Positions 2,348 through 8,197 of a stretch of DNA of 64,000 bases are shown in pieces. The first letter of the stretch is position 1. Every line of letters starts with the position of its first letter. Source of the stretch: Bacteroidia bacterium (GTDB lineage: Bacteria > Bacteroidota > Bacteroidia > Chitinophagales > Chitinophagaceae); assembly GCA_030429205.1 (NCBI GenBank), contig JAUICZ010000002.1:124001-188000 (forward strand), read 5' to 3'. The notes under the pieces are model-generated. The model was not told where the DNA came from. It ran no database searches and worked only from the letters and a program-made list of their open reading frames with translations. A program made the position numbers and the translations under genes.

Positions 2348-3607
2348 ATGATATCTGTATTCATATATCAGCTTGGAATAAAAGTATATGTGCTATTTGC
2401 ATCAATAGCTTCTTTTTTTAATGCCAAAGCGAAGCTGTTTGTACAAGGTAGAAAGGGACTGTTAGAAAAAATACGATATTCTCTTATCGATGATCAACGA
2501 GAAAGAGTATGGGTACACTGTGCATCGCTTGGAGAGTTTGAGCAAGGCAGGCCTGTTATAGAAGAATTAAGACGTAACCATCCTGAACTCGCTATTGTAA
2601 TTACATTCTTCTCACCTTCAGGATATGAGGTAAGAAAAAAATATGGTGGTGCAGATTATGTTTTTTATCTACCATATGATAGTGTTAGTAATGCCAGAAA
2701 GTTTATTGAACTTATTAAACCCAAACTTGCAATATTCGTCAAATACGAATATTGGTACTACTATCTTAATACATTAGCACAGAAGGATATTTCAACGATA
2801 TTAATTTCCGCAATCTTCAGAAAAGAACAGCCCTTCTTTAAATGGTATGGCATTTTGCATAGAAAGATGCTCAAGCTATTCAATCATATATTTGTTCAGG
2901 ATGAAGCATCCGAACGACTACTTACTAAACTTGGTGTAGAGCAAGTTTCCGTGGCTGGAGATACTCGTTTTGACAGGGTAGTTGATACGGTACGTTCTGT
3001 CGAACCGATTATTCAACTTGAAGGGTTTTGTTCTGGCTCAAAAATTCTTGTTGCCGGTAGTACTTGGCGAGAAGATGAAGTCCTATTGAAAGCTACTATT
3101 GATGAACTGCCAGGTAACTGTAAAATGATATTGGCACCTCATGAAGTACATGAAAGTCATATTCGCCAACTTCAAGAACTATACACCGGTTCTGTCTTAT
3201 GGTCTGAATATGAGCCGGAAGTTGAAGGTAATTGTCGTGTACTAATTATTGATCGTATGGGGTTGTTGTCCGGTTTGTATCAATATGCTTATATAGCCTA
3301 TATAGGTGGTGGATTTAATAAAAGTGGCATACATAATATACTTGAAGCAGCTACATATGGTAAGCCATTAACGCACGGACCTAATTATGAGAAGTTTAAG
3401 GAGGCTAGGGACCTATATGCTCTTGGCGGGTCTTTTATTACCAGAACTAAACGTGATTTACTGGAAAAACTAAACCAATACGAAAAGAACGAGAGTAGTT
3501 ACGATAGTGCTTGTAATATTGCGAAAGAGTATGTAGAAAAAAATGTAGGAGCTACTTATTTAATACTCGATTATATTCAAGAAAAGCTGCTGGACACTAA
3601 GTTATAA
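2348..3607 (+). CDS. waaA: 3-deoxy-D-manno-octulosonic acid transferase (Kdo transferase)
   Basis: WaaA/KdtA adds Kdo from CMP-Kdo to lipid IVA on the cytoplasmic face of the inner membrane, linking lipid A to LPS core. At 419 residues it has normal length. It has an N-terminal hydrophobic anchor (about 5-25), the conserved WVHCASLGEFEQGRP (55-69) carrying the SLGE acceptor-site glutamate, TFFSPSGYE (86-94), VAGSTWREDE, ILAPHE, and the C-terminal GT-B donor-binding block AYIGGGFNKSGIHNILEA followed by PLTHGPNYEKF. It follows the secreted-protein gene without a gap. Its 3' end overlaps the convergent gene at 3577-4053 by 31 bases. Confidence 0.95.
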   Translation: MISVFIYQLGIKVYVLFASIASFFNAKAKLFVQGRKGLLEKIRYSLIDDQRERVWVHCASLGEFEQGRPVIEELRRNHPELAIVITFFSPSGYEVRKKYGGADYVFYLPYDSVSNARKFIELIKPKLAIFVKYEYWYYYLNTLAQKDISTILISAIFRKEQPFFKWYGILHRKMLKLFNHIFVQDEASERLLTKLGVEQVSVAGDTRFDRVVDTVRSVEPIIQLEGFCSGSKILVAGSTWREDEVLLKATIDELPGNCKMILAPHEVHESHIRQLQELYTGSVLWSEYEPEVEGNCRVLIIDRMGLLSGLYQYAYIAYIGGGFNKSGIHNILEAATYGKPLTHGPNYEKFKEARDLYALGGSFITRTKRDLLEKLNQYEKNESSYDSACNIAKEYVEKNVGATYLILDYIQEKLLDTKL

Positions 3608-4053
3608 AAAGACTTTACTGTCTCGTCATTACTATCCCAGTTGAGGGTAGCGTCCAGCTCCTTTTTAACCCAAGTTAAAGCCTCTTCTTCGCTGGTGATT
3701 TGACTGAGTTGCTTTATAGCTTCTTCATAAGCTGTTTTATCTCCGCTAAACAATTCGCTAATGAATAAATATTTATCATTAATACCTATAACCGTTCTCA
3801 GGTCATTATAAATTGTAGTAGATTTTGGTTCTGGTGCATTTGCTTTAGGTTGTTGCAGCGTATCTTGCTCATTTGTAACCTTGGTTTCTTCTGGTTGTAT
3901 ATTTTGAAAGCCTGCTTTCTTTCTTTCTTCTAGTAAATCAGCATACATAACTCTTGTATAATCCAGCATGAGGTCTATGTCAATAGCTGTAAGAGTTCTT
4001 TGTGATTTAGATAGTTCTGATAACTTTTCTATAAGGTACTGTACTCGTTGCAT
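3577..4053 (-). CDS. Hypothetical cytoplasmic protein downstream of the exosortase substrate gene
   Basis: Protein of 158 residues, not recognised. It has no signal peptide or membrane segment. The N-terminal half (VQYLIEKLSELSKSQRTL, IDLMLDYTRVMYADLLEER) is strongly helical and charged, residues about 50-80 are a low-complexity Glu/Pro/Gln linker, and the C-terminal part (DKYLFISELFSGDKTAYEEA, TWVKKELDATLNW) is again helical. Its ATG directly abuts the stop of the Asp-rich secreted protein upstream (4054), so the two form a transcription unit. Its 3' end overlaps waaA by 31 bases tail to tail. The short helix-linker-helix form would suit a small structural or regulatory protein, but nothing more can be said. 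Confidence 0.72.
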   Translation of the reverse strand: MQRVQYLIEKLSELSKSQRTLTAIDIDLMLDYTRVMYADLLEERKKAGFQNIQPEETKVTNEQDTLQQPKANAPEPKSTTIYNDLRTVIGINDKYLFISELFSGDKTAYEEAIKQLSQITSEEEALTWVKKELDATLNWDSNDETVKSFYNLVSSSFS

Positions 4054-4605
4054 CTATTTCTGATCTTTTTGCTTTTTGGCTCTCATATCAGCTGCCTTTT
4101 TTATTCCTAATCCGGCACCGGCAAATGCTAAAAAGCTTAAGCCACCATCAAGTGGAATGTCGTTATTATCGTCGTCATCATCGTGGCTATAATTGTTGTC
4201 ATCATCGTCATGGCTGTAACTGTCGTCGTCATCATTATTATAGCTATCATCATCGTCGTTATTGTAGTAATCGTCATCATCATCATTGTTGTAATAGCTG
4301 TCGTCGTCGTTTCCCCACCACCACCAACCAGAACCTTCGTCTTTACTGCCACCACCACCAGAGCCCCAGTTACTACCCCCTGAAGTGTTTTGATGTCCAC
4401 TATTTGATGGTTTAGAACTAGTACCGTATTGATAGCTAGCAGATTGATTCTTACTGCTATTGTAGTTGCTGTTATACTGATAGGTTCTATCTTGTCGGCT
4501 TTTATTTCGTGAATCTTCGCCGTCAGGATTACCGTAAATGTTATTACTAAATAAGCTACATAGCAAAATGATGCATGCTGATGCAGATTTTGTTAAACTC
4601 CTCAT
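4054..4605 (-). CDS. Secreted Asp/Asn-rich protein with a C-terminal exosortase-type sorting tail (PLDGG; PID-CTERM-like)
   Basis: Protein of 183 residues with a signal peptide (about 1-25), a Ser/Asn/Gln/Tyr-rich low-complexity region (30-80), a Gly/Trp patch with WWWWG (94-98), then about 50 residues of Asp runs separated by Tyr/Asn/Ser/His pairs (99-149). The C-terminus has three parts: PLDGG (151-155), a short hydrophobic stretch LSFLAFAGAGLG (156-167), and a basic tail beginning KK (169). That motif-hydrophobic-basic layout is the architecture of exosortase sorting signals, and the motif resembles the Bacteroidota 'PID-CTERM' type. An exosortase-like gene lies just upstream on the same strand, so I infer this is its substrate. 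The Asp-rich part could bind Ca2+. A promoter match lies at 4644-4651. Naming of the sorting class is from memory. Confidence 0.75.
   Translation of the reverse strand: MRSLTKSASACIILLCSLFSNNIYGNPDGEDSRNKSRQDRTYQYNSNYNSSKNQSASYQYGTSSKPSNSGHQNTSGGSNWGSGGGGSKDEGSGWWWWGNDDDSYYNNDDDDDYYNNDDDDSYNNDDDDSYSHDDDDNNYSHDDDDDNNDIPLDGGLSFLAFAGAGLGIKKAADMRAKKQKDQK
4159..4311 (-). repeat. Degenerate in-frame GAT/GAC-AAT/TAT tandem repeat encoding Asp runs
   Basis: About 150 bases consist of imperfect units of Asp codons (GAT, GAC) alternating with Tyr, Asn, Ser or His codons, giving blocks such as NNDDDDDYY and SHDDDDNNYS. Codons within the Asp runs are mixed, so this is an old, degenerate repeat, not a fresh expansion. 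In the other frames it yields meaningless Ile/Val/His/Arg-rich open frames. Confidence 0.8.
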
Positions 4606-4643
4606 ATATGTATTTTTAGTTGAGTCCTCAATTCAACTAAGGT

Positions 4644-4651
4644 CAAATATA
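4644..4651 (-). promoter_or_regulatory. Candidate Bacteroidota -7 box (TATATTTG) for the Asp-rich secreted protein
   Basis: On the minus strand TATATTTG matches TAnnTTTG exactly and ends 38 bases before the ATG at 4605. No good TTTG -33 box is at the expected distance. If used, the substrate gene is transcribed separately from the exosortase genes upstream. Confidence 0.4.
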
Positions 4652-4694
4652 CATATATTCAGTTAACTATATAGGTTAACTATTGATAAACTTA

Positions 4695-5087
4695 TTATTT
4701 ACTTGCTCTGGAAGATAGAATATAGAGTATAATAATAAATAAATAGGGCAGAGGGCTGCAAAAGAAAGAACGCAGTTCTTGAATTTTATCCAAAAAAACA
4801 TTTCCAAAAAAACGGGTGAATCGTTGTATAGCTCCTATAGTTACAATAAATATAAGTACACCTGCATACGCACGCAACCATACTTTTGAGGCCCAGTGTA
4901 AAGGGTGATTTTTTAATGCCCAATACCCTACAGGAATCATGGCTATAAGTATGACTAAATGCCCCCCTTGCCTTATTATTGGAGACATTTTGCGTACAGC
5001 ATATCCTTCAGTAAAAAAATGATAGTCTAAGTATGCTATTATTGAGATTAACAGCAAACCTAACCACGTTTTAGCTTTTTGACTCAT
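4695..5087 (-). CDS. Small exosortase-associated membrane protein
   Basis: Polytopic membrane protein of 130 residues with about four hydrophobic segments (about 8-23, 43-59, 68-88, 112-127), separated by basic/aromatic loops (FTEGYAVRKMSPIIRQGG, IQRFTRFFG). Its start overlaps the exosortase gene by 17 bases, so it is co-translated with it. Bacteroidota exosortases of the XrtF and XrtX types are known to be paired with a small membrane protein of this size (exosortase F-associated or XrtX-associated protein). Assignment rests on size, topology and position more than on a motif. A role as exosortase partner or chaperone in the inner membrane is inferred. Confidence 0.7.
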   Translation of the reverse strand: MSQKAKTWLGLLLISIIAYLDYHFFTEGYAVRKMSPIIRQGGHLVILIAMIPVGYWALKNHPLHWASKVWLRAYAGVLIFIVTIGAIQRFTRFFGNVFLDKIQELRSFFCSPLPYLFIIILYILSSRASK

Positions 5088-5604
5088 TAGCTTTTGGCTT
5101 TTTTAGGTATAAAACCCACCCCAGGAAAACTACAGCATATATGATGATCTTAAACAAGTAGTGGTGTGCAAAATCTGCCATCTTATGGCTTTGTTCAAAC
5201 ATAGCAGCCAAAGCAGCTGTTCTGAAAATGTTTAGCGTATATATGATCAATGTTCCGATTACACCATAAGCAACCATTCTCTTAATGTTTGTTGGTACGC
5301 AGAGTAAAAATCCCAGATACAAAACTATTAGCTCAAGACCATTACATTGGCGCGCAATATCAACTGCCTCTACGCCATCTAGGATGATAGTGTTACCATC
5401 AGCTCTAACATCAGTATAAAACCATTTAAGTACTTCCATGCCGCCGTACTGAACCACTTGTGTCAGTTGATCATCAGGTATGCCTGCAGGCATTAATATA
5501 AAAGTGTACAGCAACTCCCAACCAATTAGTAAAATTGCTGCTCTTATTACAAATGGACGGATATTAGGAGGTATTTTATTAATGATGTTTTTGATAAAGC
5601 TCAT
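5071..5604 (-). CDS. Exosortase/archaeosortase family protein (Bacteroidota XrtF/XrtX type)
   Basis: Inner-membrane transpeptidase-like protein of 177 residues. Exosortases recognise a C-terminal tripartite signal on secreted proteins, cut it and pass the protein to the cell surface or exopolysaccharide. The catalytic triad is visible: Cys87 in ARQCNGLELIVLY, Arg128 in LNIFRTAALA, and His147 or His148 in ADFAHHYLFK. About five membrane segments surround these (20-38, 88-104, 110-125, 127-137, 152-167). It is short, as expected for Bacteroidota forms that lack the EpsI extension. It lies 15 bases after the HTTM gene and overlaps the next gene. An apparent substrate is encoded two genes downstream. 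Choice between XrtF, XrtX and other named subtypes is not possible by eye. Confidence 0.88.
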   Translation of the reverse strand: MSFIKNIINKIPPNIRPFVIRAAILLIGWELLYTFILMPAGIPDDQLTQVVQYGGMEVLKWFYTDVRADGNTIILDGVEAVDIARQCNGLELIVLYLGFLLCVPTNIKRMVAYGVIGTLIIYTLNIFRTAALAAMFEQSHKMADFAHHYLFKIIIYAVVFLGWVLYLKKPKANESKS

Positions 5605-5619
5605 GAGCTTACTTTTTAT

Positions 5620-6954
5620 TTATTTAAAATCAGTCAATATCCAATCATGATGCTTAAAAAGGTTCCATTCTTCTGCTGCAAGATCAACTGTTGTATCAAC
5701 CATGTATTTGTAAGGTCTGCCGTTTACACTACATCTGCTGTATGCATATACCCTTACGTCTAGCCCCTGTTCTTTATATTTATTTTTTAAGTGTTGAGAG
5801 AACTGCCAAATGAAGTCAGGTTTTGAAGCTACATCTTTTGCCTGATAGCTTAACATATGTTTTTCAGGAAATTCATACCAGCTACTATCTGTTCTTTTAT
5901 CAACTACTTTAAACTTTGCTTCTCCTTTTTTAGTACGCAACATCATTCTCCAAGCCATTCTATGACCTTCTTCAGTCCATAATACATCTCCTGGTATTAA
6001 GTGATGTCTAAGAGGGGTGAGCACTTGCCAAATAAGATAAGTACCAAACATTATAGTTATAAACCGTTGTTTGCCAGACGATGCTAACCTGAAATCAGAT
6101 GTGTTACTTTCTATGCCTAGTACATTATCAAAGGTTTTACCCGGGAAAAAGAAGACGTTCAGGCTCATTGCAAGAAAAGGGAAAACCCCAATGCCAAATA
6201 CAACACCATTAAAGTAATGGAATATTAGCATCGCAGCTACCGACAAATTTCTCGTCTTTTTCCATAGTAGGGCTGGGACAATGAGCAGGTCAAATAAAAT
6301 GCCCATGTAAGAGATGAAGAATGCAAATGGTTTACTGCCAAATAAAAAGCCGAATGTTGGATGGTTAGCTCTACTACTAAACCATATTTGTACCGGTTTG
6401 GCTAATAGCCAATCTGGGTACATTTTAGCGATGGATGCATAAATGTATACAATGGCAATTTGTATGATAAACACTTGTATACACCACCTATAGCAAACGT
6501 TTGATGCTTTTGTTAAACCAAACTTTACGTCTAAGGAGGTTCGTTTATTAGCAGGCATGATAGTCATTATCCAGCTAATCAACATCATCAAATAATAGTG
6601 GTTGTTATAATGACCTTTTTGCGAGAAATACACGCCGGACCATAGAAGTGCAATAATGATAATAGCTGGGCGATAGAATAATCCGAAAATGACCAGTAAT
6701 GCCATAGCGGTTGCTACGCTAAAATAGAGATACATAATATCTCCATTTAAGTTTTGTAGAAACTCAAAGCCTATAAATGTAAACCTGAAAGGAGCTATTG
6801 TGTATACATGCTTTACCCAACCATCATACAAATCTCCACCAAACTCCATTAGCATGATACATCCAAACAAGATTCTGAATGTAATTAAAGGGCTGTTGTT
6901 GACTGGCTGAAACCAGTATTTCTGAAATTTTGTTGTAAGTGTATTAGCTGCCAT
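5620..6954 (-). CDS. HTTM-domain membrane protein (vitamin K-dependent gamma-carboxylase-like)
   Basis: Membrane protein of 444 residues with the HTTM fold shared with the membrane part of vitamin K-dependent gamma-carboxylase. About seven to eight hydrophobic segments lie before residue 310. Signature pieces are RILFGCIMLMEF (27-38), GHYNNHYYLMMLISW (about 113-127) and YASIAKMYPDWLLAKP (about 172-187), the last matching the conserved K-x2-PDW loop. The C-terminal 130 residues are soluble. Bacterial HTTM proteins are mostly of unknown activity; carboxylation has not been shown for this type. It is the first gene of the exosortase operon (15 bases to the exosortase), which suggests a role in modifying or handling the sorted product. 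Confidence 0.88.
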   Translation of the reverse strand: MAANTLTTKFQKYWFQPVNNSPLITFRILFGCIMLMEFGGDLYDGWVKHVYTIAPFRFTFIGFEFLQNLNGDIMYLYFSVATAMALLVIFGLFYRPAIIIIALLWSGVYFSQKGHYNNHYYLMMLISWIMTIMPANKRTSLDVKFGLTKASNVCYRWCIQVFIIQIAIVYIYASIAKMYPDWLLAKPVQIWFSSRANHPTFGFLFGSKPFAFFISYMGILFDLLIVPALLWKKTRNLSVAAMLIFHYFNGVVFGIGVFPFLAMSLNVFFFPGKTFDNVLGIESNTSDFRLASSGKQRFITIMFGTYLIWQVLTPLRHHLIPGDVLWTEEGHRMAWRMMLRTKKGEAKFKVVDKRTDSSWYEFPEKHMLSYQAKDVASKPDFIWQFSQHLKNKYKEQGLDVRVYAYSRCSVNGRPYKYMVDTTVDLAAEEWNLFKHHDWILTDFK

Positions 6955-7011: not shown

Positions 7012-8139
7012 CTAAACTAACTCCTTTAACTTGCTAATAACAGTGTCTACTTCGTCTTTCGTGTTGTGGTGCGAGAAAGAGAACCTGATTGGCACTAATT
7101 TATCAGCTTCATCTCCATATAAAGCCTTAATAACATGACTTACAGAGCTAGCTCCGCTACTACAGGCGCTTCCTCCGCTGACACAGATGCCTGCCATGTC
7201 TAAATTAAAGAGCAACATATCTGTTTTGTCCGATTGAGGAAAAGCAACGTTCAACACTGTATACAGGCATTTACCCAAAGTATCTCCATTGAACTTGATA
7301 TTGGGAAAGTTTGCTCTTAATTGTTCTGCCATATAGGTTTTAATGTCTAAGATGTAAGCACTATCTTCCTCATAGCGATTGGTGGCTATTTCAAGAGCTT
7401 TTGCATAGCCGATAATCCCATATATATTTTCTGTACCGGCCCTCATGTTCCTTTCTTGAGATCCGCCATATATCATTGGGTTAATTGTAACATCATTATT
7501 GATATATAATACACCAATGCCCTTTGGTCCGTGAAACTTGTGACCGGCCGAACTTGCAAAATGAATTTTAGTTTCTTTTAAATTAATAGGGTAGTGTGCT
7601 ATGGTTTGTACCATATCGCAATGGAATATGGCATTATATTTTTCGCAAAGGTTGCCAACATCCTCAATGTCTAGTAGGTTTCCTATCTCATTATTAGCAT
7701 GCATTAGTGTTACTAATGTTTTTTCATTGCTGCTAGCTAGTAATTCTTCTAAGTGTATTAAGTCAATATGTCCAATGTCTGTCAGGTTTACCAAGCTGAG
7801 TGTTGCCGCTCCTTGCTTATCCAGGTGTTCTGCAGTATATAAAGTTGCATGGTGTTCTATAGCAGAAGTAATGATGTGCTTACACCCAATATCTCTTACT
7901 GCACTATTGATAGCTGTATTACTACTTTCAGTTCCTCCTGACGTGAAGAATATCTCTCCTGGAGCTACTCCTAAGGTTTTTGCAACGTATTTTCTAGCTG
8001 TTTCAATACCCAGTTTTGTTTCTCTGCCATATCCATAAATAGCAGAAGGGTTGCCAAATTTCTCTGACAAATAAGGCATCATTTCTTTAAGCACATCAGC
8101 ATCTAGAGCGGTTGTCGCAGCATTATCGAAATATATCAT
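7012..8139 (-). CDS. Cysteine desulfurase (NifS/IscS family)
   Basis: PLP enzyme that removes sulfur from cysteine and passes it as persulfide to iron-sulfur cluster, thiocofactor or tRNA thiolation pathways. I use the ATG at 8139 (MIYFDNAATT); a TTG lies one codon earlier. Numbering from that ATG, the PLP lysine is Lys201 in SSAGHKFHGPKGIG and the persulfide cysteine is Cys326 in GGSACSSG. At 375 residues and with a short SACSSG loop it belongs to the group I (NifS/IscS) class. It stands alone: no iscU or regulator beside it. Co-directional with dnaB upstream and the HTTM gene downstream, with 57-58 base gaps. Confidence 0.93.
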   Translation of the reverse strand: MIYFDNAATTALDADVLKEMMPYLSEKFGNPSAIYGYGRETKLGIETARKYVAKTLGVAPGEIFFTSGGTESSNTAINSAVRDIGCKHIITSAIEHHATLYTAEHLDKQGAATLSLVNLTDIGHIDLIHLEELLASSNEKTLVTLMHANNEIGNLLDIEDVGNLCEKYNAIFHCDMVQTIAHYPINLKETKIHFASSAGHKFHGPKGIGVLYINNDVTINPMIYGGSQERNMRAGTENIYGIIGYAKALEIATNRYEEDSAYILDIKTYMAEQLRANFPNIKFNGDTLGKCLYTVLNVAFPQSDKTDMLLFNLDMAGICVSGGSACSSGASSVSHVIKALYGDEADKLVPIRFSFSHHNTKDEVDTVISKLKELV

Positions 8140-8197
8140 CAATTGGATCTTTAGCGCCGCAAAAGTACAAAAAGCAAATGATTAGCTGTGCTTGATT

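What the first reader, a model, noticed from the sequence alone, without database searches (positions are those of the whole stretch)
4054..6954. Compact exosortase module: HTTM protein, exosortase, small membrane partner and secreted substrate
Four leftward genes (5620-6954, 5071-5604, 4695-5087, 4054-4605), with a fifth abutting (3577-4053), are spaced by 15 bases, -17 bases and 89 bases. The exosortase has Cys87, Arg128 and His147/148 visible. Known exosortase systems pair with small membrane proteins and tailed substrates, but usually sit by exopolysaccharide genes; here the whole set is about 3.4 kb with no glycan cluster attached. I infer a self-contained surface-display unit for one dedicated substrate.
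Basis: partly seen in the sequence, partly recalled or inferred. Interest (0 to 1): 0.65.

Follow-up and report, generated by a model that had tools for sequence, protein, structure and literature searches.

The report
Exosortase operon with gamma-carboxylase-like enzyme
This is a real protein-sorting operon of a Bacteroidota bacterium: a membrane peptidase, its unnamed small membrane partner and an aspartate-rich tailed surface protein, and in this one genus they sit beside a relative of the human vitamin K-dependent carboxylase, so a shared role for that enzyme is possible but unproven.

Summary
In detail: all coordinates and spacings are exact, and the exosortase's Cys87, Arg128 and His147 are invariant in 26 relatives. 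The exosortase is XrtX-like but scores below NCBIfam's XrtX cut-off (134 vs 170 bits). It belongs to a well-supported clade limited to this taxonomic family; 31 of its 35 members have the ~130-residue four-helix gene beside the exosortase. That partner has no Pfam or NCBIfam family. The substrate carries a known PID-CTERM sorting tail and an Asp-rich mature region. The 'HTTM protein' is a full-length homologue of vitamin K-dependent gamma-carboxylase, with Lys218 and His160 equivalents kept. It lies next to the exosortase only in this genus (3 of 3 resolvable species); its relatives elsewhere mostly sit between ribF and serS. 'One dedicated substrate' fails: the genome has five PID-CTERM proteins and three exosortases. 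I read this as an ordinary exosortase sorting operon with an undescribed partner, plus a genus-specific carboxylase-like neighbour. Carboxylation of the substrate is a testable long shot: long Asp-rich PID-CTERM proteins were found only in this genus, but that is one lineage, the tract has almost no Glu, and the genome has no VKOR.

The parts
5620..6954 (-). Vitamin K-dependent gamma-carboxylase-like membrane protein (HTTM domain + VKGC lumenal domain), 444 aa; H119 and K177 align with GGCX His160 and Lys218
   Evidence: PF05090 8.5e-63 and PF22777 9.4e-47; GGCX chains of the PDB at 1.6e-19, alignment showing H119/K177; both residues invariant in 81 window-type and 42-43 imelysin-type homologues
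5071..5604 (-). XrtX-like exosortase, 177 aa, catalytic Cys87, Arg128, His147
   Evidence: NF046081 134 bits (cut-off 170), TIGR04178 56.6 (cut-off 23), PF09721 36.4 (cut-off 25.7); invariant residues; family-limited clade with support 100/100
4695..5087 (-). Small four-helix membrane partner, 130 aa, start codon inside the exosortase gene (17-base overlap); no Pfam or NCBIfam family
   Evidence: No family; beside the exosortase in 31 of 35 loci of the clade; AlphaFold2 model pLDDT 95.7, all helical, no PDB relative at E<=0.001
4644..4655 (-). Conserved TATGTATATTTG with a TAnnTTTG (-7 type) promoter box before the substrate gene
   Evidence: Near-identical in three species of the genus in an otherwise diverged intergenic stretch; that TAnnTTTG is the Bacteroidota -7 consensus is from general knowledge
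4054..4605 (-). Substrate: signal peptide, Asp/Asn/Tyr-rich mature region, PID-CTERM tail (PLDGG, hydrophobic helix, basic end)
   Evidence: NF046080 28.2 bits over cut-off 26; orthologues with Asp-rich tracts in three other species of the genus
3577..4053 (-). 158-aa protein of unknown family, start codon directly after the substrate's stop; conserved downstream of the substrate within the genus; link to sorting unknown
   Evidence: No confident family; orthologue at the same place in G191, UBA5543 and G272
7012..8142 (-). Cysteine desulfurase (NifS/IscS-like), upstream and co-directional, 57 bases before the carboxylase; conserved neighbour in the genus, not regarded as part of the system
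   Evidence: TIGR03402 380.9 bits, below that model's cut-off of 530.75; PF00266 over cut-off; same place in UBA6221 and UBA5543

Best explanation
An exosortase protein-sorting operon. The substrate leaves the cytoplasm by its signal peptide and is held in the inner membrane by its C-terminal helix and basic end. The exosortase (Cys87/Arg128/His147), with its small four-helix partner, cuts at or near PLDGG and passes the Asp-rich chain on for surface display. The same exosortase probably also serves other PID-CTERM proteins of the cell. The carboxylase-like protein is an accessory, genus-specific member of the gene block; its catalytic residues are kept and its active face should look into the periplasm, but what it modifies is unknown. 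Shown here: gene content, conserved catalytic residues, conserved exosortase-partner pairing, tail motif, genome-wide co-occurrence of exosortase and tail. Inferred: cleavage, transfer to an anchor, surface location, the partner's role, co-transcription.
For: Exosortase and tail models. Invariant C87/R128/H147 in 26/26. Partner beside the exosortase in 31/35 loci of one clade with support 100/100, one of the four exceptions being cut by a contig end, and in 0 of 26 XrtX-like loci from other families (one apparent hit, L022, was a misread PID-CTERM protein). Exosortase and PID-CTERM co-occur: 44 and 46 of 149 genomes of the family, 38 with both, Fisher p 3e-21. PID-CTERM gene beside the exosortase in many of those loci. 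The same block in three species of the genus. In the analogous XrtF system, deletion of xrtF or of its small partner Fjoh_1449 abolishes zorbs, strongly lowers biofilm and lowers sand colonisation (PMC10936215).
Against: No cleavage or surface data for XrtX or PID-CTERM were found in the held literature. The exosortase is below the XrtX cut-off. Many loci with exosortase and partner show no PID-CTERM gene next door. The partner has no detectable homology to the XrtF partner once spurious N-terminal extensions are trimmed (probability 0.7%, within the range of shuffled controls).
Confidence: 0.82

Rival explanations
1. On the carboxylase-like gene: it is a bystander, a stand-alone membrane enzyme that came to lie upstream of the exosortase in the genus ancestor and shares at most transcription.
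For: 73 of the 80 closest homologues follow ribF, mostly with serS next, and have no exosortase nearby; the exceptions examined lie in unrelated neighbourhoods; 0 of 32 exosortase loci of the clade outside the genus have it; dnaB and cysteine desulfurase genes are co-directional upstream.
Against: The adjacency, with a 15-19 base gap, is kept in all three resolvable species although the carboxylases are only ~62% identical; in the family sample, window-type homologues occur only in this genus and always here.
Confidence: 0.62
2. On the carboxylase-like gene: it modifies the exosortase substrate (or another periplasmic acidic protein) before sorting, using menaquinone hydroquinone, giving carboxylated acidic residues that bind Ca2+.
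For: GGCX architecture with Lys218 and His160 equivalents conserved; Lys218 starts the reaction and both residues are essential in GGCX (PMC9146348); Asp-rich substrate in 4 of 4 species of the genus and a second Asp-rich PID-CTERM protein in two of them, while no long Asp-rich PID-CTERM protein appeared among those read from other genera.
Against: GGCX acts on Glu; the substrate has two Glu in a ~130-residue mature part and its tract is Asp. VKOR is absent from this genome and present in G191 only. Window-type homologues elsewhere have no acidic partner gene in the loci examined. One lineage, so the correlation counts once.
Confidence: 0.12
3. On the substrate: the exosortase is a general PID-CTERM processor of the cell and the neighbouring substrate is just one client, not a dedicated pair.
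For: Five PID-CTERM proteins; two of them (C12:197405, C4:1866696) have no exosortase beside them; up to nine per genome in the family.
Against: Two XrtY-like exosortases with their own adjacent PID-CTERM genes could serve the others.
Confidence: 0.6

Closest known systems
Exosortase X (XrtX, NCBIfam NF046081) with PID-CTERM (NF046080)
   Same: Best-scoring exosortase model; same tail model; substrate gene often adjacent
   Different: 134 vs a cut-off of 170 bits; XrtX loci over the cut-off (L020, L021) have no partner gene and fall outside the clade
XrtF (TIGR04128) with exosortase F system-associated protein (TIGR04127), e.g. Fjoh_1448/Fjoh_1449
   Same: Exosortase directly followed by, or overlapping, a small multi-helix membrane gene; both genes needed for normal biofilm in F. 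johnsoniae
   Different: Exosortase 64 bits vs a cut-off of 90; partner not recognisably homologous; no PID-CTERM gene noticed beside XrtF in the loci listed (read by eye only)
[quoted passage not shown]
   Same: HTTM membrane domain and lumenal domain; His160 and Lys218 equivalents
   Different: Remote (E 1.6e-19); 444 aa vs 696-766 aa PDB chains, with nothing aligned to the C-terminal part of GGCX; no VKOR in the genome; bacterial substrate unknown
HTTM/VKGC protein of imelysin-TonB-DUF4856 loci
   Same: Same domain architecture; this genome has one at C4:402691
   Different: Separate clade (100/100), about 34% identical

Membership tests
Exosortase/archaeosortase family | Signature model over cut-off and conserved Cys, Arg, His | tested here: met
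   TIGR04178 56.6 vs 23, PF09721 36.4 vs 25.7; C87, R128, H147 in 26/26
Exosortase/archaeosortase family | Cleaves and transfers a C-terminal sorting tail | not testable with these tools
   Needs biochemistry
XrtX (NF046081) | Score over the curated cut-off of 170 bits | tested here: not met
   134.1 bits; relatives in the genus and family score 115-137
XrtF (TIGR04128) | Score over the cut-off of 90 bits | tested here: not met
   64.4 bits; separate clade
XrtF system-associated protein (TIGR04127) | Model hit or profile homology of the partner | tested here: not met
   No TIGR04127 hit in 27 members; trimmed profiles 0.7% probability, like shuffled controls
PID-CTERM substrate (NF046080) | Domain score over cut-off near the C-terminus, behind a signal peptide | tested here: met
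   28.2 vs 26 bits, residues 151-170 of 183; N-terminal hydrophobic signal read directly from the sequence, no signal-peptide program run
Vitamin K-dependent gamma-carboxylase | HTTM plus VKGC lumenal domain | tested here: met
   Both Pfam domains far over cut-off
Vitamin K-dependent gamma-carboxylase | Catalytic Lys218 and His160 | tested here: met
   K177 and H119 by alignment, invariant in homologues
Vitamin K-dependent gamma-carboxylase | Quinone epoxide recycling by VKOR in the same genome (a feature of the animal cycle) | tested here: not met
   No PF07884 hit in this genome; one in G191
Vitamin K-dependent gamma-carboxylase | Carboxylates Glu in a substrate | not testable with these tools
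   Needs mass spectrometry; the adjacent substrate has almost no Glu

The most novel reading that the evidence does not exclude
A bacterial carboxylation-and-sorting line: a menaquinone-driven GGCX relative carboxylates acidic residues of an Asp-rich PID-CTERM protein in the periplasm, and the exosortase with its partner then fixes the Ca2+-binding protein to the cell surface.
Probability: 0.08. Interest if true: 0.85.

Novelty: new variant of a known kind. Interest (0 to 1): 0.4.

Why it matters
It exposes an unnamed, family-wide exosortase partner in a two-gene unit that can be deleted and assayed, in a phylum where an analogous pair controls biofilm formation. It is also a place where a bacterial gamma-carboxylase homologue has an acidic secreted protein in the same gene block, so the function of bacterial HTTM/VKGC proteins becomes testable.

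Tried and rejected
Partner homologous to the XrtF partner: hhalign on untrimmed alignments gave 73%, but this came from spurious upstream extensions; trimmed it is 0.7%, no better than controls. Partner fold in the PDB: nothing at E<=0.001. Carboxylase as a conserved module member: no adjacency elsewhere in the order sample or outside the genus. Window carboxylase as the imelysin-locus type: a separate clade. A partner hit in L022 was a PID-CTERM protein picked up by the iterated profile. Literature linking exosortase and gamma-carboxylase: no paper in the held library; no relevant text on XrtX or PID-CTERM. Solved exosortase structure: none by sequence.

Full report
What is there. 5620-6954 is not just an HTTM protein: HTTM (PF05090) is followed by the VKGC lumenal domain (PF22777), the architecture of vitamin K-dependent gamma-carboxylase. 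It aligns with solved GGCX chains at 1.6e-19; H119 and K177 face GGCX His160 and Lys218 and are invariant in 81 window-type and 42-43 other-type homologues. Those two residues are described as essential in GGCX (PMC9146348). 5071-5604 is an exosortase by TIGR04178 and PF09721, nearest to XrtX but below that model's cut-off; C87, R128 and H147 are invariant in 26 of 26. 4695-5087 matches no family. 4054-4605 passes the PID_CTERM model. 3577-4053 has no confident match.

The core module. In 149 genomes of the taxonomic family the exosortase query hits 44 and the PID-CTERM model hits 46, with 38 shared (Fisher p 3e-21). A maximum-likelihood tree puts the family's exosortases in one clade (35 rows, 100/100). 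31 of the 35 have the ~130-aa partner beside the exosortase, usually overlapping or abutting; one of the four exceptions is cut by a contig end. The 26 XrtX-like loci from other families, including those over the XrtX cut-off, lack it (1.5-kb flanks; the single apparent hit, L022, was a PID-CTERM protein). So the pair exosortase+partner marks this clade. A PID-CTERM gene is often but not always next door. The partner is predicted with high confidence as an all-helical protein (pLDDT 95.7) with no relative among solved structures and no Pfam or NCBIfam family.

Relation to XrtF. Flavobacteria have the analogous pair XrtF plus TIGR04127. Deletion of either gene in F. johnsoniae abolishes zorbs, strongly lowers biofilm and lowers sand colonisation (PMC10936215). 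The layout is alike, but trimmed profiles show no homology between the two partners: probability 0.7%, against 0.2-4.3% for block-shuffled controls. An earlier 73% was an artefact of over-long ORF starts. The analogy is of layout and perhaps of role, not of proven descent.

The carboxylase-like gene. It is next to the exosortase in this genome, in UBA6221 (the same as G191) and in UBA5543 (by coordinates the same as G375), with 15-19 base gaps and the same flanking genes: cysteine desulfurase upstream; partner, substrate, the 158-aa gene and the Kdo-transferase gene downstream. In the fourth species of the genus, G272, the contig begins just before the substrate, so it cannot be judged. No exosortase locus of the clade outside the genus has it. 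Of the 80 closest homologues, 73 lie after ribF, mostly before serS, and none of the loci outside the genus gave an exosortase hit. The tree places the window protein in that clade, apart from the imelysin/TonB-associated type, of which this genome has a copy at C4:402691. At this locus the gene is therefore an addition in one genus.

Could it act on the substrate? For: kept catalytic residues; kept adjacency despite ~62% identity; Asp-rich substrates in all four species of the genus, and a second Asp-rich PID-CTERM protein in two of them, while those read from other genera are short or not Asp-rich. Against: GGCX makes Gla from Glu and there are only two Glu in the mature region; no VKOR in this genome; one lineage gives one independent observation; the homologues elsewhere have no acidic partner gene in the loci examined. 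I put it at about 0.1.

One substrate? No. The genome has five PID-CTERM proteins and three exosortases; the two other exosortases are XrtY-like (101-121 bits, cut-off 160) with PID-CTERM genes beside them, near type IX-secreted proteins; two further PID-CTERM genes have no exosortase nearby. The substrate gene here probably has its own promoter: TATGTATATTTG at 4655-4644 is conserved in three species within a diverged spacer, so it need not be co-expressed with its neighbours.

Glycan context. No polysaccharide cluster is attached, but a DegT-type aminotransferase gene, an rmlC gene and a Kdo-transferase gene lie within about 4.5 kb, and the same three genes are near the block in G191.

Limits. 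Family and genus are given by the tool's anonymous labels; organism names come only from the genome contigs records. Counts come from samples of 149-150 genomes, not all. MAG contig ends hide some neighbours, and flanks of 1.5 kb limit what can be seen. One search's position counts rest on mechanical ORFs; ribF and serS were named by me from their sequences, not by a family search. Cleavage, anchoring and any carboxylation are inference.

Noticed in passing
L015:2705-6315, L016:6-6334 and L017:2380-5795 (G000 contig C4): Three PID-CTERM genes lie downstream of large type IX-secreted (Por_Secre_tail) proteins, two of them also next to XrtY-like exosortases; suggests a recurring T9SS-protein / PID-CTERM / exosortase association.
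   Followed up: partly
L014:4504-10404 (G000 contig C4): A second HTTM/VKGC protein sits in a TonB receptor / VKGC / imelysin / DUF4856 locus that recurs across the order: a carboxylase-like enzyme in an apparent iron-uptake cassette.
   Followed up: partly
L146-L223 (genome-contig loci, mostly Flavobacteriaceae): Window-type VKGC proteins lie between ribF and serS with very stable gene order: a stably kept gamma-carboxylase homologue of unknown role.
   Followed up: partly
PID-CTERM proteins in L224-L252: Most PID-CTERM proteins read from this family have a mature part of only about 10-40 residues between signal peptide and tail, so the displayed product would be a short peptide.
   Followed up: no
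window:3577-3607: The Kdo-transferase gene (2348-3607, +) and the 158-aa gene (3577-4053, -) overlap tail to tail by 31 bases; the same convergent overlap (37 bases) is seen in L126.
   Followed up: no
L145:8001-9315: In the UBA5543 MAG the carboxylase homologue is split over two overlapping ORFs (a frameshift, possibly an assembly error).
   Followed up: no
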